DNA of 64,000 bases from an uncultured Opitutia bacterium (GTDB taxonomy: Bacteria; Verrucomicrobiota; Verrucomicrobiia; Opitutales; Opitutaceae), in NCBI GenBank assembly GCA_903859715.1, contig CAIONS010000069.1:1-64000 (forward strand). Reading direction: 5' to 3'. Within the stretch, counting starts at the first letter, position 1, and the number at the start of each line of letters is the position of its first letter. Shown here piece by piece: positions 29,344 to 54,763 of this stretch. Position numbers and translations under genes: made by a program. The notes under the pieces are model-generated. The model saw only the letters and a list, made by a program, of their open reading frames with translations. It was not told the DNA's origin and did not search any database.

Positions 29344-29359
29344 AACTTCCCGCCTGCCC

Positions 29360-31913: not shown

Positions 31914-32027
31914 GGATTAAGCGCGAAGACGCAAAGGTGCGAAGGACGGAGCTAATTCGGAATCTCCGAGATAGGGACGCCTGCTTTTGCGATCAGCCTT
32001 CGCGACTTCGCCTCTTCGCGCTTAACC
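31914..32027. repeat. Intergenic inverted repeat, same type as 29256-29343
   Basis: ggattaagcgcgaagacgcaaaggtgcgaag ... cttcgcgacttcgcctcttcgcgcttaaccc; overlaps the 3' end of the GH43 gene. Confidence 0.75.
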
Positions 32028-35438: not shown

Positions 35439-37360
35439 GATTCTTGGATCCAGACGCGCATTTCGCCTTCGCCGCGGTTGGCCCAGAGGCCGTAGGGAAT
35501 GGCGCGCAGGGACAGGGCTTCGGTTTTCGGTGGAGTTGTCGTGTAAAGCGACGGGCTGGGTTGGACCCGCACGCCCTGGCCTTCAATCACCACGCAGCCA
35601 CCGAGCAAGGTTGCATCGCGGCGGGCGGTCAGGCTGGCGGTGCGTGGCAATGTCACTGCGGCGAGGTTGGCACCGTTGTCCGGTTCCTCGAGGCAGTACA
35701 CCACCGGCCCCCGCTGCAGCGCCACCTTGCCCGCGGCCGTCGACAGGCGCGGGTCGGCGCGCACGCGCTCGATAGGCATGGGCAGGGTGAGAAAAATCTT
35801 GTCGCCCGGCTGCCAGACCCGGCGCAAGACCGCGTAGCCCTTCACCGGCGCGAGCGGCTGTGACTGGCCATTGATCGCCAGCGTGGCCCCGCGGCACCAG
35901 CCCGGGATGCGCAGCTGCAGCGTAAACTCCAGCGGCGCGGCCGGCCGGACCTCGATGGCCACTTCCTCCGTCCACGGATAGTCGGTGCGCAGCGCGAACT
36001 TCACCTCGGCGCCGCCGACCGTGAAGCGCAGGTCAGACTCGGCATACAGATGCAGCGCAATGCCGTCGGGGCGCAACGACGCCACATAGTCGGCGAGCGA
36101 GGCGAAGAGCCGCGCGACATTCGGCGGACAGCACGCGCAGCCGAACCAGCCGACGCGCTGCGTCTTGACGAGGTGACATTCGTAGCGGCGCTTCGCCACC
36201 GCCGGGATGAGCTCGAGCGGGTTGACGTAGAAAAACTTCGTGCCGTCGAGCGACATGCCACTGAGCACGTTGTTGTAGAGCGAGCGCTCCATCACGTCGG
36301 CGAATTCCCCGCGCAGTTCCAGATCCAGCATGCGTCGCGCAAAGAAGATCACGCCGATCGCCGCGCAGGTCTCGGAATAGGCGCGGTCCGGCGGCAGATC
36401 GAACGGCTCGGTGAATTTCTCACCGTAAGGCTCCGAGCCCACTCCACCCGTAATGTAGAGATGGCGGCTCACCAGGCTGCTCCAGAGCGTGTGGCACGAA
36501 CGCACCAGCGACGCGTCGCCCAGCTCGTGCGCCAGATCCGCCATCGCCGCGAGCAGGTACATCTGCCGCACGGCATGGCCGACCGGCTCCGTCAATTCGC
36601 GCACCGGGCGGGCGGCCTGCAGCGTGGCGAGGCCGTCGAAATACATGTGCCAGGGGAGCGGATCGGCCCGGCGCCGGGATTCCTCCATGAGGTAATTGGG
36701 CGACTGGCCGCGCTGATCGATGAAATATGCGGCAAGCTGCGCATAACGCGTCTCACCGGTGGCACGGGCGAGTTTGACGAGCGCAAGCTCGATCTCCTCA
36801 TGGCCGCAATAGCCCGGGATCTGCCCGGGCCCGAGGCCGAACGTGCGCTCGATCAGGTCCGCCAGCTTGCGCACGACGGCGAGCAGCGTGCGCTTGCCGG
36901 TGGCCTGGAAGTGCGCCACGCCCGCCTCGATCATGTGGCCGGCGACATAAAGTTCATGGCAATCGCGCAGGTTGGCCCAGCGGTTCTGCGGCTCGACGAG
37001 TTGGAAATAGGTGTTGAGGTAGCCGTCCGCGCCCTGCGCTTTCGCGAGCGTCGCGATCAGGCGGTCCAGCTCGGCCTCAAGCGCGGCATCCGCATGCGTG
37101 GCGAGCCGGTAGGCCGCGGCCTCGATCCACTTGGCGAGATCGGAATCCTGCCAGAACAGCCCGTAGAATTTTCCCGGCTTCTCGCCGGCCGCGACCTGAA
37201 AGTTATGCACGCACCCGCTGGGCTCCGCGCCGGCCACGCGGTCGTTGAGCGCTTCCCACTGGTAGGGAATGACCACCTCGCGCACGAGACGGACCCGCTC
37301 GGCCAGGAACCCGCGCGTAAAACGAACCTGATTGAGCGGCAGGGCCGAAATGTAATTCAT
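35435..37360 (-). CDS. GH127 beta-L-arabinofuranosidase-like
   Basis: LNQVRFTRGFLAERVRLVREVVIPYQWEALND; SHTLWSSLVSRHLYITGGVGSEPYGEKFTEPFDLPPDRAYSETCAAIG; CHLVKTQRVGWFGCACCPPNVARLFASL. Confidence 0.93.
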   Translation of the reverse strand: MNYISALPLNQVRFTRGFLAERVRLVREVVIPYQWEALNDRVAGAEPSGCVHNFQVAAGEKPGKFYGLFWQDSDLAKWIEAAAYRLATHADAALEAELDRLIATLAKAQGADGYLNTYFQLVEPQNRWANLRDCHELYVAGHMIEAGVAHFQATGKRTLLAVVRKLADLIERTFGLGPGQIPGYCGHEEIELALVKLARATGETRYAQLAAYFIDQRGQSPNYLMEESRRRADPLPWHMYFDGLATLQAARPVRELTEPVGHAVRQMYLLAAMADLAHELGDASLVRSCHTLWSSLVSRHLYITGGVGSEPYGEKFTEPFDLPPDRAYSETCAAIGVIFFARRMLDLELRGEFADVMERSLYNNVLSGMSLDGTKFFYVNPLELIPAVAKRRYECHLVKTQRVGWFGCACCPPNVARLFASLADYVASLRPDGIALHLYAESDLRFTVGGAEVKFALRTDYPWTEEVAIEVRPAAPLEFTLQLRIPGWCRGATLAINGQSQPLAPVKGYAVLRRVWQPGDKIFLTLPMPIERVRADPRLSTAAGKVALQRGPVVYCLEEPDNGANLAAVTLPRTASLTARRDATLLGGCVVIEGQGVRVQPSPSLYTTTPPKTEALSLRAIPYGLWANRGEGEMRVWIQES

Positions 37361-38859
37361 GAGAAACGCACGGCGGCCACGGAACCGGGCGGGAGGGAAA
37401 ACTGCACCGTGCCGCCCTGAACGCGCACGCCATCGAGCGGACGGGTCGTGACCGCCCGCGGTTGTTCGAAGGTGTTGCACGTCGTCAGCACCGGCGTGGC
37501 AAGGACCCGCGCCTCGGCCAGCACTGGCGTGCGGCCCTTGAGCGCGAGCGTAATTTCGGTAGGGGTCGCGGGATCCGTATTGCAGAGCGTGACGTTCACG
37601 GCGCCATCGGTCGCGAGCGAGGCGGTCGCCGAGACCCCGGGATAGTCCAATACTCCATGCGTGACGGACGCCGCATCGTTGTCCAATGCGAGGCGCTTCG
37701 CATCCTGGTGCACCGCATAGAGCGCGAGCACGTCCCAGGTCGGCGTGAGCACAAGCCGGCCGCCGCCCTCCTCGGTGAGCGCCACGGCCTGCAGCACGTT
37801 CACGATCTGCGCGAGATTGGCGATGCGCACGCGCTCACAGTGGTTGATGAAGATGTTGAGCGTGAGCGAGGCGAGGACCGCGTCGCGGACGGTCTGCTGC
37901 TGATAAAGGAACCCGGGATTCGTGCCCGGCTCGACGGCATACCACGCGCCCCACTCGTCCACGACGAGGGAGGTGAGGCCCTTCGGATCGTAGCGGTCCA
38001 TGACCGCGCAATGACCGCGAACAATGGCCTCCATCTTCCAGCCTTCCGCCATGACGGATTTCCACCCGCTGTGATCAAACCCGGTGGCCGGGTGACTCGG
38101 TGGCCAGTCACCGAGGACCGTATAATAATGAACAGACAGGCCCTGCAGCATCGGGCCGCCGAGCGGACCCTTGAAGGCCTCGCGCATCATCACCTCGGTC
38201 CAGTGGAAGTCGTCGTTCCGCGCCCCGCTGCCAATGCGATAGAGCGGTGCGCCGGGGAAATCTCGCACGTAGGTCGCGAAGCGGCGGTACTCACCGGCAT
38301 AGTACTCGGCGGTCATGTTGCCGCCGCAGCCCCAGGTCTCGTTGCCCACGCCCCAGAGGCGGACCTTCCACGGGTCGCGGCGTCCGTTGGCCACGCGCTC
38401 GTCGGCCAGCGTGCCGGCGGAAGCGTTGCAGTACTCGACCCATTCGCGCAGCTCGCGCGGAGAACCGCTGCCCACGTTGCCGGCCAGGTACGGCTCGCAG
38501 CCGAGCTGCTCGCACAGGTCGAGAAACTCATGGGTGCCCACGGCGTTGCTCTCGACCACTCCGCCCCAGTGCGCGTTGACGCGGCGGGGACGTTTTTCGC
38601 GCGGACCGATGCCGTCGCGCCAGTGGTAATCATCGGCGAAGCAGCCGCCGGGCCAGCGCAGGTTGGGCACGCGGATCTGCTTCAAGGCCGCGACCAGATC
38701 GCGGCGCCAGCCGCGGAGGTTGGGCACCGGGGAGTTTTCGCCGACCCAGAGGCCGTCGTAGATGCAGCGACCGAGATGCTCGGCAAAGTGGCCGAAAATA
38801 TGCCGGTCAATGACCGGGCCGGGTTCGTCGGCGTGAACCGTGAGTTTAACCGGGGGCAT
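37357..38859 (-). CDS. GH51 alpha-N-arabinofuranosidase
   Basis: HIFGHFAEHLGRCIYDGLWVGENSPVPN; acid/base WGVGNETWGCGGNM; nucleophile region VVDEWGAWY; overlaps GH127 by 4 nt. Confidence 0.95.
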   Translation of the reverse strand: MPPVKLTVHADEPGPVIDRHIFGHFAEHLGRCIYDGLWVGENSPVPNLRGWRRDLVAALKQIRVPNLRWPGGCFADDYHWRDGIGPREKRPRRVNAHWGGVVESNAVGTHEFLDLCEQLGCEPYLAGNVGSGSPRELREWVEYCNASAGTLADERVANGRRDPWKVRLWGVGNETWGCGGNMTAEYYAGEYRRFATYVRDFPGAPLYRIGSGARNDDFHWTEVMMREAFKGPLGGPMLQGLSVHYYTVLGDWPPSHPATGFDHSGWKSVMAEGWKMEAIVRGHCAVMDRYDPKGLTSLVVDEWGAWYAVEPGTNPGFLYQQQTVRDAVLASLTLNIFINHCERVRIANLAQIVNVLQAVALTEEGGGRLVLTPTWDVLALYAVHQDAKRLALDNDAASVTHGVLDYPGVSATASLATDGAVNVTLCNTDPATPTEITLALKGRTPVLAEARVLATPVLTTCNTFEQPRAVTTRPLDGVRVQGGTVQFSLPPGSVAAVRFS

Positions 38860-38923: not shown

Positions 38924-40789
38924 TTACGGAATCACGCTGTCCGTGATCTTCACCGTGTTGAAGTCGAGCACCCGCTGAAGCTTGCCGTACGTGAGGGTCA
39001 GCTTGCGCGAGCCCTTCTCGGCATTGAGGTACGGACCCTCGAAGAGTTTCCACTTCGTGTAATCGAGCACGCGGCCGTCCACGAGCGGGGCGGCACCGTA
39101 GGCGACGACGATGTTTTTGCCGCGCAGCGTGCGCATCTTCACAGTGGGCACGGGCTCGAGGGAGAATTCCAACGGCAGCGCGTTGATCGCGGCCTTGAAC
39201 GCCTCGAAGTTCTTGAACTCGCCCGTGCTCGCGGCCTGCACGATGGTGCCATTCTTCAGCGAATCGCTCTGGAGCCGGCTGTCGCGGATCGCCGCCTGCG
39301 CCCAGTGGCTCTGCGTCCACACGTACGGCGCAAGCGGCCGGTAGGCGAGGTAGGCGTTGCCGCCCTGCGCGAAGATCCAGCCGGACTTGTCCTCGGTCAG
39401 CTTGGTCAGGTCCTTCGAGAAAAACCCGTTGATGTGCGGGAATTTCGTGCCGGGCGGGATGTCGTAAAGCGCGACGATCGTGTCGAGATCCTGGAACACC
39501 TGCTCGTATGGCGAACTGCCGACCAGCTTGTCGGGCGAATCATAGCTCGGCTTGCTCAGGTTGACGGCGCCGCCCGCCGTGGTGTCGGGATAATCGGCAA
39601 AGTACATTTGCATCGTGTGCGGCGAAGATTCCGGATGCATCGAGAACATGAGGTTGTGCTGGCCGCGGGGATTCGGCACGGCCCAGGTCACATCCCAGAC
39701 GTGCGACTGGATGGGATCGGAGACGCCGCCCTGGTAGGAGCCCACCGCGTAGTCGTGCCGGACGTAGGTGGTCTTGTAAATCGGGGCGAAGAGCACATCG
39801 CTGTAACGCCAGCGGCGGCGGGTGCGCTTCAGGTCCTTCTGCAGGTAGTCGTGGTCGCGGTCCATCGCGATGCGGTAGAGCACCTCCGGCACCTCGTAAT
39901 TGGGCGCGGCCGGCGCGAAGTAAACGCCCCAGCCGCCGAAGCCCGCCGGCGGCGGCACGTTGCCGAACAGCAGCCAGGAGAAATACGCCGCCAGGCTGTT
40001 CGCTGGCTCGATCAGCGCCTCGTCCGTGGTCCGCGAGTGCGAACCAACCGGCACGCCGTTGAGGGTGCCCTCGGCGAGGTCGGAGAAAATCCATTCCAGC
40101 ATCATGTGGCCGCGCGTTTTCATCGCGGGATCCTTCGCCCAGCTGGCGAGGTACATCAGCGGGCAGGCGTATTCCCCGATGTAATGCACGGGGTTGTACT
40201 CGCCCTGGCCGACGGTCGTCGCGAGATCCATCCAATGGATGAGATATTCCTTCGCCTCGGCGAGATTCTCCGCGGAGCTCTTCCCCGTGTACCACGAGCT
40301 GGCGGGTTCGTTCGGGTACATTTCCGAGATGAGGTAGAGCGAAATGTAGTACATCGCCCAGTGGTTCTCCGTGTCGCCACGGATCTGGTACGTCGTGCGC
40401 CACATGTCGCGCATCGCCTGCTTCGCCTCGGACGAGAGCTGGTCGCGGCCCATGTAGGTCACGCACACCACGGGAAACATCCAGAACGGACCCGTGCCCG
40501 GCGCCTTCATCAGGCGGATGACCTGCTCCGAGCAGAATTTCGGATCCTCGTGGCGTGCGAGCATCGTCGCGACGGCGGCGAGATCGATGCCGGCCGGATC
40601 GGCGCGGTTCACGAGGTTGGCGCGGTAGTCGATGACTTCCTGGACGCGTTTCAAATAGGCGGCGCGACGGGCCGCGGCGTCCGTCACGATCTCGCGACTC
40701 GGTACGGTCGTGGCGCTGAAGGAAGGCTGCGCGCGCAGGGCCGCGGTCGCCGCGAGGAGGAACAGCAGGGCAGTAAGGAAAATTTTCAT
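38924..40789 (-). CDS. Uncharacterised secreted protein, family A copy 1
   Basis: Signal peptide MKIFLTALLFLLAATAALRAQ; shares GDTENHWAMYY, TGKSSAENLAEAK, LKRTRRRWRYSD, SYQGGVSDPIQ, SGWIFAQGG.AYLAYRPLAPY with 41913-43823. Confidence 0.85.
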   Translation of the reverse strand: MKIFLTALLFLLAATAALRAQPSFSATTVPSREIVTDAAARRAAYLKRVQEVIDYRANLVNRADPAGIDLAAVATMLARHEDPKFCSEQVIRLMKAPGTGPFWMFPVVCVTYMGRDQLSSEAKQAMRDMWRTTYQIRGDTENHWAMYYISLYLISEMYPNEPASSWYTGKSSAENLAEAKEYLIHWMDLATTVGQGEYNPVHYIGEYACPLMYLASWAKDPAMKTRGHMMLEWIFSDLAEGTLNGVPVGSHSRTTDEALIEPANSLAAYFSWLLFGNVPPPAGFGGWGVYFAPAAPNYEVPEVLYRIAMDRDHDYLQKDLKRTRRRWRYSDVLFAPIYKTTYVRHDYAVGSYQGGVSDPIQSHVWDVTWAVPNPRGQHNLMFSMHPESSPHTMQMYFADYPDTTAGGAVNLSKPSYDSPDKLVGSSPYEQVFQDLDTIVALYDIPPGTKFPHINGFFSKDLTKLTEDKSGWIFAQGGNAYLAYRPLAPYVWTQSHWAQAAIRDSRLQSDSLKNGTIVQAASTGEFKNFEAFKAAINALPLEFSLEPVPTVKMRTLRGKNIVVAYGAAPLVDGRVLDYTKWKLFEGPYLNAEKGSRKLTLTYGKLQRVLDFNTVKITDSVIP

Positions 40790-40807
40790 GGTGGCAGGGA
40801 AGCGGTT

Positions 40808-41848
40808 TTACTTGGTGGCGCGGGGCAGGAACACGAACCGGTTCACCGCCGATCCTTCGAGGCCCTCGTTTTTCCACGTCCGGCCGAAATCATCCGAGGA
40901 ATACAGCGCCTCGCCGATCACGCTGGCGTACAGGCGGCCCGAGTCGGGATCCACACCCACGCGCCAGACACAATGCGCCGGCGGATCACTGTCCATGCGG
41001 AAACCGGCCTTCTTGCCGGGCAGGCCGGCGTTGCGCTCGACCCAGGTTGCGCCGCCGTCCTCCGACGTCATCACGCCGACCGACCAGCTGCAGAGCGCGA
41101 AGCGCGCCGGGTTGGTCGGATCAAACGTGATGTTGTAGAGCGCCTTGTCGGCCGGCGGCCCGGCCAGCGGCGTCCACGTGAGCCCGCCATCGCGCGAGAT
41201 GAGGGCGCCGGCGCTCTGCGACACGGCCAGCCAGAGTTTCGGATCGGAGGGCGACTGCTGGAGATCGGTGATCGTGTCCTTGGTCGGGAACACCCGGCGC
41301 CACGACTGCGCGCTGTTCTCGGTGAGATAAATTCCCGTCTCGCAGCCCGCGAGCACGCGGCCGGCCTTCGTGCGGTCCACCCGGATGGTCTGCGTGTATT
41401 TGCCGCGGTCCGGCAGGCCGTTTTCCAGGCGCGGCCAAGTGTTGCCGCGGTCGGGCGAAACCGCGATCCCGTCGGGCAGCGCGATGTAGACGTGGTCCGG
41501 CGCGTTGGGATCGACATCCAGGTCCTTCAGCTCGGTCATGTCCCAGCTCGTGGTGCAGCGCCAGGTCTTGCCGCCATCGAGCGTCCGCCAGCAGCCGTTG
41601 ATCGCGGCAACATAGAATACGTTATGGTCGCGGGGATCGAAGGACAGCGCGGTGACGGTGACGTCGTTGTTGCCGAGATGCGTCCATTCGCCGTTCGCCT
41701 CGCGGCGGAAGACGCCGTTGATCGTCACGATGACGGAGCCTACGACGTAATTCCGGTTGGTGGCGGCGCAGATGTAGAAATCGTGGCCGGCCGCCAAGGC
41801 CGAGGTGGCGACGGTCAGGGATAGAAGGACGGAACGGAGGAATTTCAT
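40808..41848 (-). CDS. Secreted Asp-box (BNR/sortilin-like) beta-propeller, family B copy 1
   Basis: Signal peptide; repeated S.DGG.TW boxes (TLDGGKTW, SPDRGNTW, SRDGGLTW, SEDGGATW, SSDDFGRTW). Confidence 0.85.
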   Translation of the reverse strand: MKFLRSVLLSLTVATSALAAGHDFYICAATNRNYVVGSVIVTINGVFRREANGEWTHLGNNDVTVTALSFDPRDHNVFYVAAINGCWRTLDGGKTWRCTTSWDMTELKDLDVDPNAPDHVYIALPDGIAVSPDRGNTWPRLENGLPDRGKYTQTIRVDRTKAGRVLAGCETGIYLTENSAQSWRRVFPTKDTITDLQQSPSDPKLWLAVSQSAGALISRDGGLTWTPLAGPPADKALYNITFDPTNPARFALCSWSVGVMTSEDGGATWVERNAGLPGKKAGFRMDSDPPAHCVWRVGVDPDSGRLYASVIGEALYSSDDFGRTWKNEGLEGSAVNRFVFLPRATK

Positions 41849-41912
41849 GAGAGGGGAAGATGGGTTGGGGAGACGGCCGGGAAGACCCCGCCGTTCGATC
41901 CGGGGGATAGAG

Positions 41913-43823
41913 TCAGGGGAGAACGGAGTCTGTGATGCTGAGGGTGTTAAAATCCAGCACGCGCTTGAGCTGGCCGTGGGTGATCGTGAGTTTCCGCGAG
42001 CCTTTCTCGGCGTTGAGATAAAGCCCCTCGAACAGCTTCCATTTCGAGTAATCCAGCGGCGTGCCGTTGACGACCGGCGCCTGGCCATAAGTGAATGAGA
42101 TCCGCGTACCGCGCAGCGTGGTCAGTTTCACGACGGGCACCGGCCCGAGCTTGAACTCCAAAGGCAGCGCCTTGATCGCGGCCTGGAAGGCCTCGAAGCT
42201 CGCGAACTCATCCACGGACGCCGCCTGCACGATCGTGCCGTTCTGCAGGTGCTCGCTGACGAGCAGCTTGTCGCCGTGTTCGCCCGGATCGGTACGCTCC
42301 CATTTGTAGCCGGATTTCGAGGGCAGCTGTTTGTAACCGAGCAGATGCTCCCACCGATAGGGCGCCAGCGGCCGGTACGCCAGGTAGGTGCGGCCGCCCT
42401 GGGCGAAAATCCAGCCCGACTTGTCCTCGGTGACACGGATCAGGTCCTTCGAGAAAAATCCGTTGATACGGGGATAGGCGGTGCCGGCCGGGATGTCGTA
42501 GAGAGCGATCACCGTGTCGCGATCCTGGAACACGCGTTCGTACGGCGAGGAGCCGAGGACCTTGTCCGGCACGTCGTACGAAGGTTTTCCCTGGCCCGAA
42601 AGCGAGGAGATCATCTCGTCGGGCTGCTCCGTGAAATACGTCTGCAACGTGTGGGCCGAGGCATACGGATGCAGGGAGTAAATCGTGTTGTTTACGCCCC
42701 GCGGATCCGGCACCGCCCACATCACGTCCCACACGTGGGTCTGGATCGGATCGGACACGCCGCCCTGGTAGGAGCCGACGGAATAATCCCGGTGCATGTA
42801 GCTGGTCTTGTAGATCGGCGGCATGAACTGGTCGCTGTAGCGCCAGCGGCGGCGCGTGCGCTTGAGATCGCGCTGCACGTAATCCTGGCTGCGATCCACT
42901 GCGACTTGGTAAATGACCGCGGGGACCTGATAATTCTCCGCGGCGCCGGCAAAGAAGATGCCAAACCCGCCGTAGCTGGCCGGCGGCGGAGTGTTGCCAA
43001 ACATCGTCCAGGTGAAAAAGGAGGACAGGCTGTTCCAGTGCTCGACCACGGAGGCCTCCGTTGTGCGGGCGTTGGGACCGCGCAGCACGCCGTTCAGCGA
43101 GTTGTCCGCCAGCTCGGCCATCAGCCAGTCGAGCATCATGTGCCCGCGGATCTTCATCTCCGGATCCTTCGACCAGGTCGCGAGGTAGAGCATCGGGATC
43201 GCATACTCCCCGATGTAGTGCGTCGGGTTGAACTCGCCCTGCCCGATCGTCGTCGCGAGATCCATCCAATGGATCAGGTAAGCCTTCGCTTCGGCCCGGT
43301 TTTCCGCGGAGCTCTTCCCGGTGAACCAGCTGTCGGCCGGGTCGTCAGGGTAAAGCTCCGACATCAGGTACAGCGAAGAGTAATACATCGCCCAATGGTT
43401 CTCCGTGTCGCCGCGCAGGGGAAAATAGGTGCGCCAGGCATCCCGGATCGCGGCCTTCGCCTCGGGCGAAAGCTGGTCGCGCCCGAGGTAGGAAATCGCC
43501 GCCCAGGGAAACATCCAGAACATGTCTCCCGTCTGCGGCTGCTTCATCAGCTCGACGATGCGGGCGGAAACCAGGGCGGCATCCTGCCGCAGCGCGAGCT
43601 TGGCCACGATCTGGCCCGTGCCGATGGTCTCGGGTTTCTCCGGCTTCACCGTGTCCGCGTACCAGACGAGGACCTCGTGGACGCGGTCGAGGTAAGCCCG
43701 GCGCAGCGTGTCGCCCCGGGTGTCCGGCGGCGGCACGGGCATGGGGCCGCTGAAAGCCGGCTGGGCCGGGGCCGAGCCAGCGAGGAAAAGCGCGAAGGCG
43801 AGAAAACCGAAAAAGGGCTTCAT
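41913..43823 (-). CDS. Uncharacterised secreted protein, family A copy 2
   Basis: Signal peptide MKPFFGFLAFALFLAGSAPAQ; close paralog of copy 1 over full length. Confidence 0.85.
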   Translation of the reverse strand: MKPFFGFLAFALFLAGSAPAQPAFSGPMPVPPPDTRGDTLRRAYLDRVHEVLVWYADTVKPEKPETIGTGQIVAKLALRQDAALVSARIVELMKQPQTGDMFWMFPWAAISYLGRDQLSPEAKAAIRDAWRTYFPLRGDTENHWAMYYSSLYLMSELYPDDPADSWFTGKSSAENRAEAKAYLIHWMDLATTIGQGEFNPTHYIGEYAIPMLYLATWSKDPEMKIRGHMMLDWLMAELADNSLNGVLRGPNARTTEASVVEHWNSLSSFFTWTMFGNTPPPASYGGFGIFFAGAAENYQVPAVIYQVAVDRSQDYVQRDLKRTRRRWRYSDQFMPPIYKTSYMHRDYSVGSYQGGVSDPIQTHVWDVMWAVPDPRGVNNTIYSLHPYASAHTLQTYFTEQPDEMISSLSGQGKPSYDVPDKVLGSSPYERVFQDRDTVIALYDIPAGTAYPRINGFFSKDLIRVTEDKSGWIFAQGGRTYLAYRPLAPYRWEHLLGYKQLPSKSGYKWERTDPGEHGDKLLVSEHLQNGTIVQAASVDEFASFEAFQAAIKALPLEFKLGPVPVVKLTTLRGTRISFTYGQAPVVNGTPLDYSKWKLFEGLYLNAEKGSRKLTITHGQLKRVLDFNTLSITDSVLP

Positions 43824-43842
43824 GGTCGGAGGGTTTGCAGGG

Positions 43843-44868
43843 TCAGTTCGCCGCCTTGGGCACAAAGGCAAACGCAGTGACCCGGGAAGCCGGCAGGCCG
43901 CCGATCCGCCAAGTCCGGCCGAAATTATCGGACACGTAGAGCGCCTGCTCGACCAGCGAGGCATACAGCCGGCCCGTGTCCGGATCGATCGCCGTGCGCC
44001 AGACATGGTGCGAGTCCGGCAAACCGGTATTGCGGGTCTGCCACGTCCGGCCGCCGTCTTCGCTCACGAACAGTCCATCCGTCCAACTCGTGATCGCGAG
44101 ACGCTGCGGATCGCGCGCATCAAAGGCCACATTGTAGAGAGCGTGGTCGGACGGCACACTGGCGAGTTTCGTCCAGGTGCGTCCCCCATCCCGGGAACCA
44201 AGCGCCCCGTCGCCCTCCGTGACCGCCAGCCACCGCAACGGATCGTGCGGCGACTGCTGGATATCCTCGATGGTCACGGCGGTCGGAAACACCCGCCGCC
44301 AGGATTTCGCACCGTCCTCGGTCAGATAGATGCCCGTCTCGCAGCCCGCGAACACACGGCCCGCGTGCGTCCGGTCGACCTGCACGACCTGCGTGTACTT
44401 GCCCCGGTCCGGCAGGCCCCGCTCCATCCGGGTCCACGTCAGGCCGCGGTCATGCGAAACAATGACGCCGTCCGGCACGCCGACATAAACCGTGTCGGGC
44501 TGGTGGGGATCAACGACCACGGATTTCGGCTCGGTCACATCCCAGTCCGTGACCACGCGCCACGTCTTGCCGCCGTCCGGCGTGCGCAGGAGACCGTTCA
44601 ACGCGGCGACATAAAACATCCGGGGGTCGCGCGGATCGAACGCCAGGGCCAGCATCATCGCCTGGTTGATCCCGAATTGCGTGAAATCGCCGCCGGCCTC
44701 CCGGCGATAGACGCCGTTCAGGCCGGAATCCTTGAAGCCGATGACGCGGGCACTGCCGTTGATCGAGGCACAGAGGTACAAGTCGTGCGCCGGGGCGGCG
44801 GCGCCGGGCGCAGCCACCGCCGAGGCCAGCAAGACCAGCAGTGCGGGAAGAACTTTATTTCGCAGCAT
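43843..44868 (-). CDS. Secreted Asp-box beta-propeller, family B copy 2
   Basis: Close paralog of 40808-41848 (LPDRGKYTQ..VDRT.AGRV.AGCETGIYLTE). Confidence 0.85.
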   Translation of the reverse strand: MLRNKVLPALLVLLASAVAAPGAAAPAHDLYLCASINGSARVIGFKDSGLNGVYRREAGGDFTQFGINQAMMLALAFDPRDPRMFYVAALNGLLRTPDGGKTWRVVTDWDVTEPKSVVVDPHQPDTVYVGVPDGVIVSHDRGLTWTRMERGLPDRGKYTQVVQVDRTHAGRVFAGCETGIYLTEDGAKSWRRVFPTAVTIEDIQQSPHDPLRWLAVTEGDGALGSRDGGRTWTKLASVPSDHALYNVAFDARDPQRLAITSWTDGLFVSEDGGRTWQTRNTGLPDSHHVWRTAIDPDTGRLYASLVEQALYVSDNFGRTWRIGGLPASRVTAFAFVPKAAN

Positions 44869-44893
44869 AAGGTGGCGGGGCGGGAACGGCGGC

Positions 44894-46186
44894 TCAGGCT
44901 TTCTTGAGGATCTCGTCGACGGCACCGACCAGCCGGTCGCACTCGTCGTGAAAATTAAACACATGGAGCGACACGCGCACGGCATCCAGGCCCTGCTCGT
45001 TCACGGGCCGGCAGCGCAGGCGGTAATCGCGCCACAGGTCGCTGAAAAGTTTTTCGTAACCCAGTTTCGGCGTATGAAACGTGAGGATCGATCCCCAGAG
45101 TCCGTCTCCAGCCGGGGTCAGGATTTCCACGCCCGGGATTTTCTCCAGGCCCCGGCGCAGATGCGCCGCCAGTGTCCGGCCGCGCGCGGCGATCCGCTCA
45201 CGTCCGATTGCTTCCTGGAACTTCAGTGCCTCCGCCAGCGCCACCACGCTCGCGGCATTGCGCGTGCCGTACTCGTAGCGAACCGCCGACGGCGTGTAGG
45301 TGAGTTCACCCGGCAGGTGGGGCAGCGAGCCCGAGTAGGCGCCGATCCCGGAGGGCGCGACGTCGTCCTGGCGCTCGCGGCGGATGAAAAAGACGCCGGT
45401 CTCATGGGGCCCACCGAGCCACTTGTGTCCGCTCGTGGCATAGGAATCGCACTCAAGATCGCGCACGGCGAACGGGAACATGCCGCCGGACTGCGCGCCA
45501 TCGATGTGAAACCAGGCGCCGTGCTCATGCGCCAGCCGGCCGATCGCCGCCGCGGGCAGAAAAATGCCCGTCGGGGAAGTCACGTGACTGATCTGGATCA
45601 CCTTTGTGCGCGGCGTGATCAGGGCGCGGATGCGTTCCACATTGCTCTCCGCGCCTGCGGGATCGGGCACGAATACCTTCACCACGACCCCGCGGGTCTT
45701 GTGCTGGTTGTACCAGGGGATCGAACCGCCCGGATGCGCATGCGAGTCGATGATCACCTCGTCGCCGGCCCCGAGCTTGAGGCCGGACGCCACGATCGAC
45801 GTGCCTTCGGTCGTGTTGCGCGTGAGGCAGATTTCATCGGGCTTCGCTTGGAAGAATCGGGCGACGACCTCGCGGGCCGGGGCAAACTGGTCGTGGCCGG
45901 TGTCGGAGTCCTTCTGACGTTTCAGCATTTCCTGCGTGAACGCATTGAGCACGGGGGTGGACGCCGGGCCGAGGCCGCCGGTGTTGAAATAAACCAGCGT
46001 GGGATCGAGCGAGGCATACTGCGCCCGCACCGCGCGCCAGAAACCCTCGGGCTTTCCCTCGTCGAAGGCCGGCAGCACCACCGGCGGGGCATCGATGGTT
46101 TCGCGGGCAAAAAGCGCCGGGGCGGCAAACGCGCCCAAGGCGCCGATCCCCACATTGCGCAGAAAATCCTTCCGGTTGGTGGTCAT
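44894..46186 (-). CDS. Tat-exported class V aminotransferase-fold PLP enzyme (isopenicillin-N-epimerase-like)
   Basis: TTNRKDFLRNVGIGALGAFAAPALFA leader; HIDGAQSGG and SGHKWLGGPHETGVFFIRRE PLP-lysine motif. Confidence 0.9.
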   Translation of the reverse strand: MTTNRKDFLRNVGIGALGAFAAPALFARETIDAPPVVLPAFDEGKPEGFWRAVRAQYASLDPTLVYFNTGGLGPASTPVLNAFTQEMLKRQKDSDTGHDQFAPAREVVARFFQAKPDEICLTRNTTEGTSIVASGLKLGAGDEVIIDSHAHPGGSIPWYNQHKTRGVVVKVFVPDPAGAESNVERIRALITPRTKVIQISHVTSPTGIFLPAAAIGRLAHEHGAWFHIDGAQSGGMFPFAVRDLECDSYATSGHKWLGGPHETGVFFIRRERQDDVAPSGIGAYSGSLPHLPGELTYTPSAVRYEYGTRNAASVVALAEALKFQEAIGRERIAARGRTLAAHLRRGLEKIPGVEILTPAGDGLWGSILTFHTPKLGYEKLFSDLWRDYRLRCRPVNEQGLDAVRVSLHVFNFHDECDRLVGAVDEILKKA

Positions 46187-47043
46187 GGCGAGGTGAAGGT
46201 CAGGGTGTGGTCAAGGGCCAGCTCCGCTCCCGCGGCCAGCCCGAGATCCTGGTCGAATTGCACGGGAAAGGCCGCGAGCGGATAATTGCGCCGGACAAAC
46301 CAGTGCAGCGGGCCGCGGTTGTTGGCAAAGCGAATGACCGCGCGATTGAGCGTGGTGTCGGACTGCGCATGCCACTCCATCCAGCCGGCGGGCGCGCCAT
46401 GCACCGCCTTGTCACCCTCGAGTCCGCCTTCGGCCGTGATTTTGATGGTGGGATCAAGATGATCGTCCAGCAGGGCCCGCGCCCCGCGGAATTGCAGGCC
46501 GGTGTAGTGCGAGCCGGCCAAGCCGCCAAACGAATGGGGATTGCCCAGTGAAAGGCCGCGGCCGGTGGCATTGCGGAGCCGGGTGCTCCAGCGGAGGGAC
46601 CAGGATTTCTTCTCCGCTTCCACTGCGATCTCAACGGTCCGGTCTTCGTGGAAGATGACTTCCTGCGGCGTCCGCCATTCCAGTGTGTGTGCCAGCGTGG
46701 CGGTCGGACCGTCGGTCGACAACTTTGTCCAAGTCACATGGCGTTGTTCGCCGTGGTCATCGCGCCATTTGTAACCGTCTTCGCGCCGGCAGGTGGGGCC
46801 ACCCCAGAAGTTGAGGCCGGAAACATTCGTCAGCGTGAACGAGAGCCCGTGGTGCCAGGGATGGTCGTTCGGGCGGAAGTTGGTGAGCGTGTCGCCCGCG
46901 AGCGAGTTGACCGGATGGAAATACGGGCGGGGCGATTCCTTCAGCGCCTCCGCCGAGACATACACGTAGCGGCAGAGCACGCGTTCGTCCGCGAGGACCG
47001 TCACCGCCCGGTCGGGCTCGTGCTGCAGTCGAAGCGTGCTCAT
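46183..47043 (-). CDS. DUF6807/PmoA-like protein
   Basis: SPRPYFHPVNSLAGDTLTNFRPNDHPWHHGLSFTLTNVSGLNFWGG; 4-nt overlaps with both neighbours. Confidence 0.8.
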   Translation of the reverse strand: MSTLRLQHEPDRAVTVLADERVLCRYVYVSAEALKESPRPYFHPVNSLAGDTLTNFRPNDHPWHHGLSFTLTNVSGLNFWGGPTCRREDGYKWRDDHGEQRHVTWTKLSTDGPTATLAHTLEWRTPQEVIFHEDRTVEIAVEAEKKSWSLRWSTRLRNATGRGLSLGNPHSFGGLAGSHYTGLQFRGARALLDDHLDPTIKITAEGGLEGDKAVHGAPAGWMEWHAQSDTTLNRAVIRFANNRGPLHWFVRRNYPLAAFPVQFDQDLGLAAGAELALDHTLTFTSP

Positions 47044-49481
47044 GCGAGGGCGAAGGCCTCCTCGAATTTGCCGCCGGCCAGGGTGCGAACTTCACCTCCC
47101 AGTGCGGCGATGGTCACCTCGACACCCGCCGGCGCGGCGACCTTCAGGTGGAATTTTCCGCCCACCACGCGCCACGCGACCTCGATGAGGCCATGCGGCG
47201 TGCACACGCTGCCGGCGGCATGCGTGAGCCCGCAGCGGTTGGGCGCGATGCGGACCTTGGCAAAGCCGGGCTCTGTCGCGGTGACGCCAAGGATGCGCTG
47301 CTGGAACTCGAGCACGGGATGCGCACTCCACGCATGACAGAGCGAGCGCCAGTAGCTGTTTTCCTCCACGAAGGTCGACAGGCCGTAGCTGATCGATTCA
47401 TGCCACGGGCCAAGATACTTCGGCATGTCATCGGCGCGGCCGCATTTCGCCAGCGCGGCGAAACCGGTGTGCCACCAGAAGAAGGAACCGGGCGCGAGTT
47501 TCTCGTCGTTCGGAAACCGCCGCAGGATGATCGCGCGTTCCCGTTCACCGGCGAGGCCCGCGACGATCGCCCAGGCGTTGCCGTACTGGCTGACTTCCGG
47601 ACCGCCGGGGCGGTCGAAGTAGAGCCCCTCCGCCTCGGACCAAAATTGCGCGTGCGCCTTGCGGCGCAGGTCCTGGGCCTCGCGCGCGAGCGCATCGGCC
47701 TCGGCGGCGCCGCCAAAATGACGGATGAGCAACGCGGCCTCGTCGAGGGCGTTGATATATTGCGCGGAGTGAATGCAGGTCGTGCCGGTATCGGCGCCCG
47801 GCACCACGCCGCGCGGCCACCATGGGCACCAGTCGGTGATGTTCCAAAACGGCAGCCGGGCGGGCAGGCCGTCAGCGTCGGTGTGACGGCGGTACCAGTC
47901 GAGCACGGCGCGAATGCCCGGGAGCAGGTCCTGCACGGTGGCGCGGTCGCCGGTGCAGTAAAAGTAGTCCTTGATGTTGGTGATCCAGTGAATGCTCCAG
48001 GCGGGGATGATCTGCACGAGCCGCGACGGGAATCGCGCCTGCGTGAGGCCGTCGGACAGCCGCGACCAGTCGAAGTGATACAGGGCCTGGCGGCTCAGCC
48101 GGTAATCGCCCGTCGTGAGCATGCCGAGCTTCGAGGTGATCATCGTGTCACCCGCATACTGCATCTGTTCGTAGTGCGGGCAGTCCTCAAAGGTTTCGTG
48201 CGAACACATCCGCATCGTGTGGAGGCCGACCTGCCAGATCTTGTCGAGCGCCGGGTCGGACGAGCTGAACGTGGCGGTGATGCGGTAGGGATAGGCCGTG
48301 AACCGGTGCTTCACCGCGCGGAGGGTGAGCGGCGCGGCACCGACCTTGATCTCCAGGCCGATGTAGCGGAACGCGCGCCAGTGCAGCGGCTCAAACGTTT
48401 CCGCCCCGCCCGACGGCTCCCAAACATCGCCCCAGCCCGTGACCAGGCCGCGGCGATCAAAGGTCCAGCCGCGGCTTTCGTCGGCGAAGTGCGAGGCGAG
48501 ATTCGCGAGCGACTGTTGTTTGCCGAGCAGCTTCGCGCCCGGCGTGTTCCAAGGCAGGCGCAGCGCCTCGGCGTAAGTCAGCCGGACCACGCTGCCTGGG
48601 CCACCGGTGACTTCGAGATGCGGGAAGGCGGTGGTGAGTTCCGTCGCATCGAGCACGAGGGTCACCGTTTCGTTCGCCGGCAAGGTCAGGGCGATGCCCT
48701 GCTCCAGCAGCGCCTTCCATGGGGCGGAAACCGGCGCGCCTCCGGCGAGAAATGCGTCCTCAAACACCTCGGGCGCCCCTTCCTCGAGCATCGGCACCAT
48801 GCGCGGCATCAGGCCATAGGGACTGGCGGGATCGCGGCGGTTCACCAGCAGCTCGGCCTTGAACAGCACATGCGCCACGGGCCAGGCCGTGTCGTCAAAC
48901 CCGGGCGTGTTCCAGCCGGTCGGGATCAGGCTCGAAACGCGGTGCTCAAAATAGCCCAGGTAGCCCTCGAACGTGGTGTGCTCATTCTGGAACCGGTGGG
49001 CTTTGTCCACGGCGACCTTCCACGTCGCATCCGTGCGCAGGTCCGTGAGCGTCTCGCCCGACCGGGTCTGCAGCGCGCCTTCCAGCACAAAGCCGCCGGT
49101 GTAGGTCATCACCGAGCACGGCGGCCCGAGCAACGCAGGCCGGTGTGCCACGCGCGACATGTCGAGCACCAGCGCCGCGAGGACGTTGCGGCCGCGGCGC
49201 AGGTGCGGCGCGAGGTCGAACGTCTCGTAGAAATGATGGTTCACGTCGCCCTTCGCGGGTCCGCGGCCGAGCAGCGTGCCATTGCAGAAAAACAAATAGC
49301 GGCTGTCGCCCGAGACATGAACCGTCAGCGCCGCGGCCGCGGGATCAGCGACGTCGAAGGTGCGGCGGAAATACCGCACCTGATAGTGCGAGGGCGTGGC
49401 CGCCTCGGGCGGCGGCGCGGAATGGGATCCCTCGGCGGACCAGATCCACGAGGCGGAGTTGATGAAGGGTTGGACGGACAC
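47040..49481 (-). CDS. GH78 alpha-L-rhamnosidase-like
   Basis: SHETFEDCPHYEQMQYAGDTMITSKLGMLTTGDYRLSRQAL catalytic region; N-terminal beta-sandwich domains. Confidence 0.9.
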   Translation of the reverse strand: MSVQPFINSASWIWSAEGSHSAPPPEAATPSHYQVRYFRRTFDVADPAAAALTVHVSGDSRYLFFCNGTLLGRGPAKGDVNHHFYETFDLAPHLRRGRNVLAALVLDMSRVAHRPALLGPPCSVMTYTGGFVLEGALQTRSGETLTDLRTDATWKVAVDKAHRFQNEHTTFEGYLGYFEHRVSSLIPTGWNTPGFDDTAWPVAHVLFKAELLVNRRDPASPYGLMPRMVPMLEEGAPEVFEDAFLAGGAPVSAPWKALLEQGIALTLPANETVTLVLDATELTTAFPHLEVTGGPGSVVRLTYAEALRLPWNTPGAKLLGKQQSLANLASHFADESRGWTFDRRGLVTGWGDVWEPSGGAETFEPLHWRAFRYIGLEIKVGAAPLTLRAVKHRFTAYPYRITATFSSSDPALDKIWQVGLHTMRMCSHETFEDCPHYEQMQYAGDTMITSKLGMLTTGDYRLSRQALYHFDWSRLSDGLTQARFPSRLVQIIPAWSIHWITNIKDYFYCTGDRATVQDLLPGIRAVLDWYRRHTDADGLPARLPFWNITDWCPWWPRGVVPGADTGTTCIHSAQYINALDEAALLIRHFGGAAEADALAREAQDLRRKAHAQFWSEAEGLYFDRPGGPEVSQYGNAWAIVAGLAGERERAIILRRFPNDEKLAPGSFFWWHTGFAALAKCGRADDMPKYLGPWHESISYGLSTFVEENSYWRSLCHAWSAHPVLEFQQRILGVTATEPGFAKVRIAPNRCGLTHAAGSVCTPHGLIEVAWRVVGGKFHLKVAAPAGVEVTIAALGGEVRTLAGGKFEEAFALA

Positions 49482-49511
49482 GGGGTGAAGATGAGGGTGA
49501 AATCGTTGGGC

Positions 49512-50516
49512 TCAGCGGGCCGGCGGCACAAAAATATAATCGAAGCCGTAGGCGCCGTAAAGGCCGCCATTTTGCCAGGTGAAACCGAGATCGTCGGAAT
49601 AGTAGCTGCCTTCCTCGAAGGTTGAGGCCCAGAGACGGCCCTTCACATCGGGGTCGAAGGCCAGCACGAAGACATTCCGGACCGGCAGGCCCGCGGAGCG
49701 ATCCGCCCACGTTTTGCCACCGTCAGCCGACACGCGCACGCCGATCCCCCAGCCTCCCACGGCAAGCTGGGCGGCTGTCCGCGGCGAAACCGCCACGGCG
49801 TAAAGATTGGCCGAAGCCGAGCCGGGATCCGTCGCATTCCAACTGGCGCCGCCATCATGCGAGAGCCAAGCGCCGCGTCCCTGGGTGCCGGCCAGGATGA
49901 ATTTCGGTTCCGCTGCACTCTGGGCGAGCCGCAGCACGCTCACGGCGGGGAATTTTGCCCGCTGCCACAAAGCCGCGCCATTCACCGAGACATAGACCCC
50001 GTCCTCCGTGCCCAGCAGGACGCGGCCCGCGTGCGCCGAGTCGGCGAGGATCGTCTGGCAGTAAAATTTCGCGAGACCCTGGTGCGCAAGCTGCCACGTC
50101 TCGCCGCCATCGATGGAACGCAGCGGACCCCACGCCGTCGCCGCGTAAACGAGCGACGGATTGTGCCGGTCAAAGACAATGCTGCGCACGTCGGCCACTT
50201 CCCAGCCCGTGACCTTGCGCCAGGTGCGGCCTCCATCGGGCGTGCGCACGACGCCGTCGGAACTGGCCAGCAGCATGACATCGGAATTCACCGGGCTCAC
50301 CGCCAGGCCCGCGACCCCCAGAATGCGCGGGCCGAAATTGGCCCATTGGCCATCGGCGGCGCGAAGATACAGGCCGGAGTCGAGCGGAGTCGGCGAATTT
50401 TTCTGGGCCTTGGTCATGGACACAGCGGCATAGAACCGGCTCGGGCCCGGGGCTTCCGCAGCCTGCACGCCGGCGGTCAGAACCAAAAAAGGAAGAAGGA
50501 AACGAAGAAGGCTCAT
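49512..50516 (-). CDS. Secreted Asp-box beta-propeller, family B copy 3
   Basis: Signal MSLLRFLLPFLVLTAGVQAAEA; TPDGGRTW, SIDGGETW, SHDGGASW, SADGGKTW; 4-nt overlap with family A copy 3. Confidence 0.85.
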   Translation of the reverse strand: MSLLRFLLPFLVLTAGVQAAEAPGPSRFYAAVSMTKAQKNSPTPLDSGLYLRAADGQWANFGPRILGVAGLAVSPVNSDVMLLASSDGVVRTPDGGRTWRKVTGWEVADVRSIVFDRHNPSLVYAATAWGPLRSIDGGETWQLAHQGLAKFYCQTILADSAHAGRVLLGTEDGVYVSVNGAALWQRAKFPAVSVLRLAQSAAEPKFILAGTQGRGAWLSHDGGASWNATDPGSASANLYAVAVSPRTAAQLAVGGWGIGVRVSADGGKTWADRSAGLPVRNVFVLAFDPDVKGRLWASTFEEGSYYSDDLGFTWQNGGLYGAYGFDYIFVPPAR

Positions 50517-52447
50517 GGCTGGGCGGGGACCACGGTCAATGAGCTGGCGTTGTGCTCGAAATCCAGGAGATAGCGCTCCGGACCGTAGCTGATTTCAAGT
50601 TTCTGACTGCCCCGGAGCGCATGGCCGAACGGGCTTTCGAACAGCGGCCATTTCGCGAAATCCACAAGCTTGCCGTTGATGGCCGGCGTCTGGCCATAGC
50701 GGGCATGGATCACCGTGCCGTCGAGAGAGGTGAACGTCGCCTCGGGCGCAGCAGTCGTGGAAAATTTCAGCGGCAGCGTGCGCACCGCGGCCTTGAACGC
50801 CTCGTAGGAGGCAAAGTCCCGGGCGGCTGCGACCTGAACCACGTAGCCATTCCGCAGGGCCGGACTCACATAACAGCGGTGACCTGCGCCCCAGTCCGTG
50901 AAACCCCCGCTGATAAAGGTGCCGCCGGCGCCGTTGCGCAGCAGGCCGGTCCAGTCGCTCGGTCTCCATTCGCCGTGAGCAAACGGGCGGTACGCGATGT
51001 AGGCCGGTCCGCCTTGCGCGAAAATCCAGCCGGAGGCGTCCTCGTCCGTCTGCGCGAGGTCGCGCGAGAAAAACACCGTCACCAGCGGGAAGCGCGTGCC
51101 CGGCGGGATATCGTAGAGGGCGATGAGTGCGGCCCCATGCTGGTAAACCTGTTCGTAGGGAGAGCCGCCGGGGAGTTTGTCGGGAGTGTCGTAGTCGGCC
51201 TTGGAGCGGGCAATGATGTTGGTGGCGGTGTCCCAATCCCCGGCAAAAAACATCGTGCCCTCGAGAGGCGACGAATAGGGCTGCACCCCGAAGAACGTGT
51301 TGGCCGCCTTGGCCGCCGGCAGGTCTGTGCGCCAGATAAGGCTCCACGTCTGCTGCTGAATGGGCTGGAGCAGGCCGCCTTGCGTGGAGCCGAGGATGAA
51401 GTCGCTGTCCACATAGCTGTATTTATAAACCGGTAGGGTGCGCTTATCGCCGATCATAAACGTGCCGGCCTCGGCATTGCGCATGCGCCAGCGGGTGCGC
51501 TTGAGTTCGCGCTCGACGTAGGGTTGGTCGCGATCGCGGGCGATCCGCTCGAGGATCGGCGGCGGGGTGTAGCCGCTCAAGGTGAGCAGCTGGACCGTGG
51601 CATTGGGCTGGCGCTCGCCAAAACCGAAGAGCAGCCAGCCGAGGGCCACCGAAGGTGTGATGCCGGGCGCCACGATTTGCTTCGGATACACCCGGCTGTG
51701 CGCACCACCATAGTATCCGTCGAGCGTTTCGACGGCGTAATCATAAATGACATAATCGAGCAGCATGTGTGCCTTGTGCCGGAAGGCCGGGTCGTGGGCC
51801 CAACCTGACAGCAACGAGAGCCCGATGACGTATTCCTCGATATAATTGGGCGAATCATACTCGCCCTGGCCAAAGGAGGTCGTGACCTCCATCCAGTGCT
51901 CAAGGTAGCTGCGGGCCTCGGCCATGTTTTCCGCCGAGGATTTCCCGTTGGACCATTTCCCGGGGCCGGCTCCGGGGTAGCTTTGGGCCGCGAGGTAGAG
52001 GGTGGAGTAGTAAAGCACCCAGTGGTTCTCGGTATCGCCCCGGCTCGGCCAGTAAGTGCGCCAGAGTTCGGCGATGCGGGCGCGGGTGGCATCGTCCAGG
52101 CCGCGTTCTCCCGCCATCATCACGGACACCATCGGATACATCCAAAACATGTCACCGGTGGGCTTGGGAGCGATGAGCCTGGCCAGACGCGCCAAGGCCG
52201 CCTCACGCCGCTCCCCGCGCTGGAGACACGTGGCGACGTCAAAATAGCTCCCTTTGGTCGGGTCCGCAGCTTGAATCGCCGCCATCGAACTGGTCGCGAC
52301 GCTTTGGCAGCGCTCCTGGTAGCGGCGGGCAATCTCGGCATCCGACAGAGAAATCGGGTCAATCGCGGCCCGGCTGACCATGGCTCCCATCGCCCCAACC
52401 AAGACCAACACCATGATACCGCGCCTCTTTACCTGTTTCACGATCAT
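50513..52447 (-). CDS. Uncharacterised secreted protein, family A copy 3 (divergent)
   Basis: GDTENHWVLYYSTLYLAA, NGKSSAENMAEARSYLEHWMEV, LKRTRWRMRN, GSTQGGLLQPIQ, SGWIFAQGGPAYIAYRPFA. Confidence 0.83.
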   Translation of the reverse strand: MIVKQVKRRGIMVLVLVGAMGAMVSRAAIDPISLSDAEIARRYQERCQSVATSSMAAIQAADPTKGSYFDVATCLQRGERREAALARLARLIAPKPTGDMFWMYPMVSVMMAGERGLDDATRARIAELWRTYWPSRGDTENHWVLYYSTLYLAAQSYPGAGPGKWSNGKSSAENMAEARSYLEHWMEVTTSFGQGEYDSPNYIEEYVIGLSLLSGWAHDPAFRHKAHMLLDYVIYDYAVETLDGYYGGAHSRVYPKQIVAPGITPSVALGWLLFGFGERQPNATVQLLTLSGYTPPPILERIARDRDQPYVERELKRTRWRMRNAEAGTFMIGDKRTLPVYKYSYVDSDFILGSTQGGLLQPIQQQTWSLIWRTDLPAAKAANTFFGVQPYSSPLEGTMFFAGDWDTATNIIARSKADYDTPDKLPGGSPYEQVYQHGAALIALYDIPPGTRFPLVTVFFSRDLAQTDEDASGWIFAQGGPAYIAYRPFAHGEWRPSDWTGLLRNGAGGTFISGGFTDWGAGHRCYVSPALRNGYVVQVAAARDFASYEAFKAAVRTLPLKFSTTAAPEATFTSLDGTVIHARYGQTPAINGKLVDFAKWPLFESPFGHALRGSQKLEISYGPERYLLDFEHNASSLTVVPAQP

Positions 52448-53515: not shown

Positions 53516-54556
53516 ATGCTCATCGCCGATATTGCCCACCGGGCCAAGGTCTCTCCCGCCACGGTCTCCCGCGTCATTAATCAGCCTCACTTGGTCGCGC
53601 CCGACCGGCTGGCCCGGGTGCAGGCGGTCATGACCGCGGTCAACTATGTGCCGACACCCCTGCACCGGCGCCGCGGACCCAAGTCGCGCCTCGCCACGCC
53701 CAAGAAAATCGCCGTGTGGTTCGTGGGCGCGAAGAAAACCTCCACTCATAACTGGTTTCAGGACCAATTGCTGCACATCCAGCCTTCCAATGAACGGCAA
53801 CGCATCGAGCTGAGCGTGCTGTTCTCGGACACCCCGGAAGATCTGCCCCGGGTGCTCGCGGAGCGCCAGGTCGACGGCGTCATCATCCAAGGCATGGAGC
53901 CCTCGGCGGCCTGCATGCAGAAGCTCGGCACGCTGCCGCATGTGTGGTTCATGACCCGCCGCACCTCCAATTTCTCCGGTGATTACGTCGAGCCTGACAA
54001 CGACCTCAACGGCCGGCTCGCCGCCGATTTCCTGCACAGCCGCGGACACAAGACCGTCGGCGTGATCGCGACCGACCCGGCCTACAGCGCCGTGGCCTGG
54101 CGCGCGAAGTCATTCGCCGAGCGGGCCAAGGAACTCGGCCTGACCGTGCACCACATTTTCGGCAAGACCCGGCCGGGCGTCAGCTACCTCGAAATCGTGC
54201 CCTTGCACGAGGAAAGCGACACGCTGGTTCGCCGCATGATGCAGGCGACACCCCGCCCGACCGGTCTCTACATGCCCGTGGATCATTTCTGCGGCTCGTT
54301 CTTTCGCTCGATGCGGCAGGCCGGCCTGAAATCAGAGCGCGATTTTGAAGCCGTGCTCGGGAACTACAACCAGGTCATCTATCATAATCTCGACCATCTG
54401 CCGGCCGCACTCGACATCAACCTGCCCACGTTGGTGCGCAAGGTTGTCGATCATCTCGTCTGGCGGATAGAAAACCCGCAGGCCATCGGCCGCGTAGGCA
54501 TCAGCATTGCCCCCACGCTTGTGACCATGGCCCAGTCGAAGCAGTTGATCGCCTGA
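53516..54556 (+). CDS. LacI family transcriptional regulator
   Basis: N-terminal HTH IADIAHRAKVSPATVSRVINQPHLVAPDRLARVQAVMTAVNYVP; periplasmic-binding-like core. Confidence 0.95.
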   Translation: MLIADIAHRAKVSPATVSRVINQPHLVAPDRLARVQAVMTAVNYVPTPLHRRRGPKSRLATPKKIAVWFVGAKKTSTHNWFQDQLLHIQPSNERQRIELSVLFSDTPEDLPRVLAERQVDGVIIQGMEPSAACMQKLGTLPHVWFMTRRTSNFSGDYVEPDNDLNGRLAADFLHSRGHKTVGVIATDPAYSAVAWRAKSFAERAKELGLTVHHIFGKTRPGVSYLEIVPLHEESDTLVRRMMQATPRPTGLYMPVDHFCGSFFRSMRQAGLKSERDFEAVLGNYNQVIYHNLDHLPAALDINLPTLVRKVVDHLVWRIENPQAIGRVGISIAPTLVTMAQSKQLIA

Positions 54557-54763
54557 ATTTTCATCAAAGCCGCAAAAGACTACTCTTGCTAAAGTAGATC
54601 GGGCTCTTTTCCCTCGGTTTCGACTCTTCGCCCCCCGGTGAGTCTGTCGGCCCCCCACCTACGCAGCCTTTGGCTGCGCGTTCTTTACAGTTTCTTACTT
54701 TCCCGATTTTGGGCGCGTTTACCCGTGCCCGAAGCCGGAAACTACAAACCACCCCCCACAAGA

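What the first reader, a model, noticed from the sequence alone, without database searches (positions are those of the whole stretch)
38924..52447. Three paired copies of an uncharacterised secreted protein (A) and a secreted Asp-box propeller (B) in one operon
Three ~620-645 aa secreted proteins (38924-40789, 41913-43823, 50513-52447) share GDTENHW(A/V)(M/L)YY, GKSSAEN.AEA, LKRTR.R, G(S).QGG...PIQ and SGWIFAQGG.AY.AYRP(L/F)A. Each sits beside a secreted ~335-346 aa propeller with S.DGG.TW boxes (40808-41848, 43843-44868, 49512-50516); pair 3 has a 4-nt ATGA overlap. Conserved pairing across three copies suggests each pair works as a unit. The helical N-terminal half with an invariant GDTENHW and a beta-rich C-terminal half looks like an alpha-toroid plus beta-sandwich lyase layout, but I do not recognise the family. 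This is my main candidate for an undescribed system: an exported two-component glycan/glycopeptide processing module.
Basis: partly seen in the sequence, partly recalled or inferred. Interest (0 to 1): 0.8.

Follow-up and report, generated by a model that had tools for sequence, protein, structure and literature searches.

The report
Paired secreted lyase-like enzyme and propeller
Three neighbouring gene pairs each encode a secreted protein that looks like an unrecognised family of sugar-acid-cutting enzymes plus a dedicated propeller-shaped partner, and this partnership holds across several bacterial phyla, where the two genes swap order and are sometimes fused into one.

Summary
A has no Pfam, NCBIfam or PDB sequence match. 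An AlphaFold2 model of A1 (pLDDT 91.4) matches only polysaccharide lyases among its 23 best PDB hits (PL35, PL17, PL33, PL8). In 41 divergent homologs N142, E197, Y203 and R253 are invariant and H143 is 40/41. The N-to-Y spacing (61) lies within the 53-63 of known toroid lyases.

B is a 7-bladed Asp-box propeller. Among 57 related genomes A and B occur in the same 22; 43/43 B genes touch an A, and 43/47 A genes touch a B. In named genomes 77 of 81 untruncated A genes have B alongside, in Verrucomicrobiota, Rhodothermales, KSB1 and Acidobacteriota, with at least three order flips and natural A-B fusions. A fusion model has pTM 0.91, as expected if A and B pack in a fixed orientation.

Best reading: A is a new family in the toroid/beta-sandwich lyase superfamily that cleaves uronic-acid glycans by beta-elimination, with B as an obligate, probably non-catalytic partner. 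Activity, substrate and the complex are untested; distant A relatives lack B.

The parts
38924..40789 (-). A1: secreted lyase-like protein, 621 aa, subfamily I (H363 kept)
40808..41848 (-). B1: secreted Asp-box propeller, 346 aa, upstream partner of A1
41913..43823 (-). A2: secreted lyase-like protein, 636 aa, subfamily I
43843..44868 (-). B2: secreted Asp-box propeller, 341 aa, upstream partner of A2
44894..46186 (-). Class-V aminotransferase-fold PLP enzyme with Tat-like signal, weakly PvdN-like; recurrent neighbour of A-B, also in Rhodothermales
46183..47043 (-). DUF6807 protein, conserved in Opitutaceae A-B loci
47040..49481 (-). GH78-type alpha-L-rhamnosidase
49512..50516 (-). B3: secreted Asp-box propeller, 334 aa, downstream partner of A3, 4-nt overlap
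50513..52447 (-). A3: secreted lyase-like protein, 644 aa, subfamily II (H363 replaced by Q)
37357..38859 (-). alpha-L-arabinofuranosidase (GH51-like C-terminal domain)
35435..37480 (-). GH127 beta-L-arabinofuranosidase
33897..35438 (-). M28 peptidase
33046..33900 (-). S51 peptidase (PepE-like) with Tat signal; recurrent A-B neighbour
32022..32915 (-). GH43 family glycosidase
53516..54556 (+). LacI-type regulator, divergent
54638..57784 (+). TonB-dependent receptor (plug domain)

Best explanation
It most likely cleaves a uronic-acid-containing glycan by beta-elimination: N142 (with H143) neutralises the uronate carboxylate, Y203 is the base/acid, and R253/E197 support the site. B is a single 7-bladed Asp-box propeller that binds A to form an obligate exported A-B complex and probably gives substrate binding or stability rather than catalysis. 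In this operon three pairs of two types (A1/A2 with a beta-domain His, A3 without) would work with rhamnosidase, arabinofuranosidases and exported peptidases on one complex acidic glycan or glycoconjugate. Shown by computation: A's predicted fold, the conserved residues, the A-B linkage and fusions. Inferred: catalysis, elimination chemistry, B's role, substrate.
For: AF2 model of A1: pLDDT 91.4, pTM 0.91. All 23 best Foldseek PDB hits are polysaccharide lyases, best 8khw 4.4e-6 and Alg17c 4ojz 4.9e-6. N142, E197, Y203, R253 in 41/41 and H143 in 40/41 divergent homologs. N-to-Y spacing of 61 lies in the 53-63 of Table 4 of PMC12088678 and of PMC11848413. The best profile-profile match to local Hepar_II_III proteins places A's ENH and E..S..Y on the stretches carrying their N and Y motifs, although the score is weak. 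A-B linkage: same 22 of 57 genomes, 43/43 B beside A; 77/81 in named loci; at least 3 order changes; natural fusions L076, L080, L043, L054; fusion model pTM 0.91. Context: GH88-like unsaturated-uronyl-hydrolase homolog beside A-B in 7 Rhodothermales-type loci; heparinase II/III-family protein beside A-B in marine Opitutales.
Against: No significant sequence or profile link to any known lyase. Foldseek TM-scores are low (0.3-0.4) at large rmsd, so domain arrangement differs or only parts align. The beta-domain His of known lyases is not invariant: 0/53 in subfamily II. No GH88/GH105 in this operon; the genome's only GH88-family match is on another contig. Distant A relatives lack B. pTM is an indirect sign of a fixed interface; no PAE matrix was available.
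Confidence: 0.62

Rival explanations
1. A has the lyase fold but is a uronate C5-epimerase (like human DS-epi1, which shares fold and Tyr) rather than a lyase.
For: PMC11848413 notes DS-epi1 shares fold and catalytic Tyr with these lyases; the beta-domain His is lost in subfamily II.
Against: Context is catabolic: TonB receptor, glycosidases, GH88-like and heparinase-like neighbours.
Confidence: 0.1
2. A-B is a glycan-binding or surface-recruitment complex without catalysis; the lyase fold is retained only as scaffold.
For: The usual third catalytic His is missing in subfamily II; B resembles Ycf48/sortilin binding propellers.
Against: Strict invariance of N142/E197/Y203/R253 even at about 22-30% identity, more than a scaffold needs; several copies per operon.
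Confidence: 0.13
3. A is a glycosidase or a differently acting enzyme (for example on glycopeptide or amino-acid-substituted sugars) that converged on a toroid plus sandwich layout; the peptidases and the exported PLP enzyme are its real partners.
For: S51, M28 and the PLP enzyme recur beside A-B in several lineages.
Against: All significant fold matches are lyases and the N-H...Y spacing matches them.
Confidence: 0.1
4. The pairing is only inherited operon neighbourhood, with no physical partnership.
For: Related genomes inherit gene order; distant A relatives do without B.
Against: Order flips at least three times while adjacency is kept, fusions, recurrence in four phyla, fusion pTM 0.91.
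Confidence: 0.05

Closest known systems
PL35 GAGase II/VII and PL33 BtPL33HA (glycosaminoglycan lyases)
   Same: Two-domain helical toroid plus beta-sandwich; Asn neutraliser and a catalytic Tyr 53-54 residues on; among the top Foldseek hits.
   Different: No detectable sequence similarity; A's spacing is 61 and the beta-domain His is lost in subfamily II; no propeller partner is described in the passages read.
PL17 alginate lyase Alg17c and PL8 xanthan/hyaluronate/chondroitin AC lyases
   Same: Same overall fold by Foldseek; N...Y or N-H...Y active-site residues.
   Different: TM-scores only 0.3-0.4; profile comparison of A with local PF05426 and PF07940 proteins is not above background.
GH74 xyloglucanases, Ycf48/HCF136, DAIP (Asp-box propellers)
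   Same: B's closest solved sequences and folds; 7-bladed Asp-box propeller.
   Different: GH74 uses two propellers with the active site between them (own knowledge); B is a single propeller and always paired with A.

Membership tests
Toroid/beta-sandwich polysaccharide lyase superfamily (PL8/12/15/17/21/23/33/35/39) | (alpha/alpha)n toroid followed by antiparallel beta-sandwich | tested here: met
   helices 38-309, strands after 315; best 23 PDB hits are lyases (moderate E, low TM)
Toroid/beta-sandwich polysaccharide lyase superfamily (PL8/12/15/17/21/23/33/35/39) | Asn/His neutraliser and Tyr base/acid at the usual spacing (53-63) | tested here: met
   N142-Y203 spacing 61, invariant; geometry in the cleft not inspected
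Toroid/beta-sandwich polysaccharide lyase superfamily (PL8/12/15/17/21/23/33/35/39) | beta-domain His about 130-166 residues after the Tyr (most families; in PL8/PL23 the His precedes the Tyr) | tested here: inconclusive
   H363 (160 after Y203) in 27/34 outside subfamily II, 0/53 in subfamily II; structural equivalence not checked
Toroid/beta-sandwich polysaccharide lyase superfamily (PL8/12/15/17/21/23/33/35/39) | beta-elimination activity on uronates | not testable with these tools
   needs purified protein
Any existing PL family with Pfam, NCBIfam or PDB representation | sequence or profile match to the family | tested here: not met
Sortilin/Ycf48/GH74 Asp-box propellers (for B) | Asp-box repeats and beta-propeller fold | tested here: met
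GH74 (for B) | tandem propellers with catalytic Asp pair between them | tested here: not met
   B is one propeller of about 310 residues; catalytic Asp residues not mapped

The most novel reading that the evidence does not exclude
A-B is the first two-protein polysaccharide lyase: a new PL family whose catalytic toroid/sandwich subunit works only as a complex with a dedicated Asp-box propeller, with natural single-chain fusions, acting on an as yet unassigned acidic glycoconjugate that also needs exported peptidases and a PLP enzyme.
Probability: 0.35. Interest if true: 0.75.

Novelty: new variant of a known kind. Interest (0 to 1): 0.62.

Why it matters
It would add a sequence-invisible family (320 encoding stretches found in one scan of species genomes, in at least four phyla) to the uronate lyases and introduce an obligate propeller partner, which is not described for this enzyme class in the papers read. 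The natural A-B fusion gives a ready construct for testing activity and structure.

Tried and rejected
Single-protein and profile searches of A against Pfam, NCBIfam and PDB gave nothing. hhalign of A against local Hepar_II_III, alginate-lyase and control families was not significant (best P 0.014, only with the broadest A profile); a first run used a wrong global option. The first fusion alignment (A5) misplaced B rows on A and was discarded; row sets were then chosen offline so that A and B rows fall on the right parts. Reading stop-separated pairs in frame for a paired alignment was considered; apart from the natural fusions only one such pair in the fetched loci is in frame, so it was dropped. 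Paper searches for a lyase-propeller heterodimer or a new Verrucomicrobia lyase family found nothing. GH74-type catalysis by B was rejected because B is a single propeller.

Full report
Observation. The six genes are present at the stated coordinates, all on the minus strand. A1, A2 and A3 are 621, 636 and 644 aa; B1-B3 are 346, 341 and 334 aa. Pairs 1 and 2 are B then A; pair 3 is A then B with an ATGA overlap. The operon reads A3-B3-GH78-DUF6807-class-V PLP enzyme-B2-A2-B1-A1-arabinofuranosidase-GH127-M28-S51-GH43, with a divergent LacI regulator and TonB-dependent receptor.

What A is. A has no match in Pfam, NCBIfam or the PDB by sequence, nor as an 87-sequence profile against PDB. AF2 on that alignment gave pLDDT 91.4 and pTM 0.91, with helices to residue 309 and then beta strands. 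Foldseek against the PDB gave 15 hits at E<=0.001, all polysaccharide lyases, and the first 23 hits are all lyases: PL35 GAGase VII/II (8khw, 8khv), PL17 Alg17c (4ojz), PL33 BtPL33HA and PL8 xanthan, hyaluronate and chondroitin AC lyases. TM-scores are only 0.3-0.4, so this is superfamily, not family, similarity.

Active-site residues. The 77 loci were retrieved with GDTENHW and FWM patterns, so motif invariance within that set is partly by construction. The 41-sequence alignment is less biased: 26 of its rows are distant homologs found without motif choice. There N142, E197, Y203 and R253 are 41/41 and H143 is 40/41. Table 4 of PMC12088678 and PMC11848413 list the neutraliser and Tyr of most known lyases of this fold 53-63 residues apart; here it is 61. 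The position nearest the known beta-domain His, H363 (160 after Y203; 130-166 in PL12, 15, 17, 21, 33, 35 and 39), is His in 27 of 34 sequences outside subfamily II and in 0 of 53 of subfamily II. A1/A2 and A3 are therefore two types. That H363 is structurally equivalent is an inference, as no coordinates were available.

A-B partnership. In 57 related genomes the A and B families occur in the same 22; 43/43 B genes lie beside an A, 43/47 A genes beside a B (two of the four exceptions are G006 fragments, one at a contig start), and 0/11 distant A relatives are beside a B. In 77 named loci from Verrucomicrobiota, Rhodothermales, KSB1 and Acidobacteriota, 77 of 81 untruncated A genes have a same-strand B next to them (52 A-B, 25 B-A). 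On the A tree the order changes at least three times. A and B are one open frame in L076, L080, L043 and L054. The AF2 model of the L080 fusion (972 aa) has pLDDT 90.9 and pTM 0.91 despite a disordered linker at about 642-660; if the domains were not oriented relative to each other, pTM could hardly exceed about 0.65 (A is about 63% of the chain; my estimate). The alignment rows were mostly unpaired, so the packing signal comes from the model itself rather than from coevolution.

What B is. B is a single 7-bladed Asp-box propeller nearest GH74 propellers, 3b7f, DAIP and Ycf48. A single propeller lacks GH74's two-propeller active site, so a binding or stabilising role is more likely.

Context. 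Three lineage-specific settings recur. Freshwater Opitutaceae: GH78, DUF6807, the Tat-signal PLP enzyme, M28, S51, GH51 and GH127. Marine Opitutales: a Hepar_II_III-family protein, S51, NagA/NagB-like genes and a sodium symporter. Rhodothermales and relatives: PhyH, a GH88-like protein matching unsaturated glucuronyl hydrolases in PDB at 1.5e-11, a cupin, MocA oxidoreductases and an SDR. Neighbours of the second and third kind fit the products of a uronate lyase. The S51, M28 and PLP neighbours suggest peptide or amino-acid substituents; this is a lead only.

Verdict. Lyase activity, substrate and the physical complex remain untested. I file A as a probable new family of the known toroid/beta-sandwich lyase superfamily, with the dedicated propeller partner as the new element.

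Noticed in passing
window 44894-46186 (-): A Tat-signal class-V PLP enzyme (weakly PvdN-like over its full length) is a recurrent neighbour of A-B, 50-56% identical even in Rhodothermales loci; an exported PLP enzyme in a glycan locus is unexplained.
   Followed up: partly
window 33046-33900 (-) and L084, L086-L088, L105: A PepE-like S51 peptidase recurs beside A-B in both freshwater and marine Opitutales, with different surrounding genes.
   Followed up: partly
L101:6047-11761 (+): Three tandem A genes without any B in the fetched stretch; the same genome has an A-B pair elsewhere (L082).
   Followed up: no
window 5859-9224 (+): A 1121-aa ORF carries a Hepar_II_III_C match, a possible further lyase-type enzyme in the window.
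   Followed up: no
window 26695-31873 (-): Two tandem MacB/FtsX-type permease genes of about 838 aa each next to the glycan operon.
   Followed up: no
   Followed up: partly
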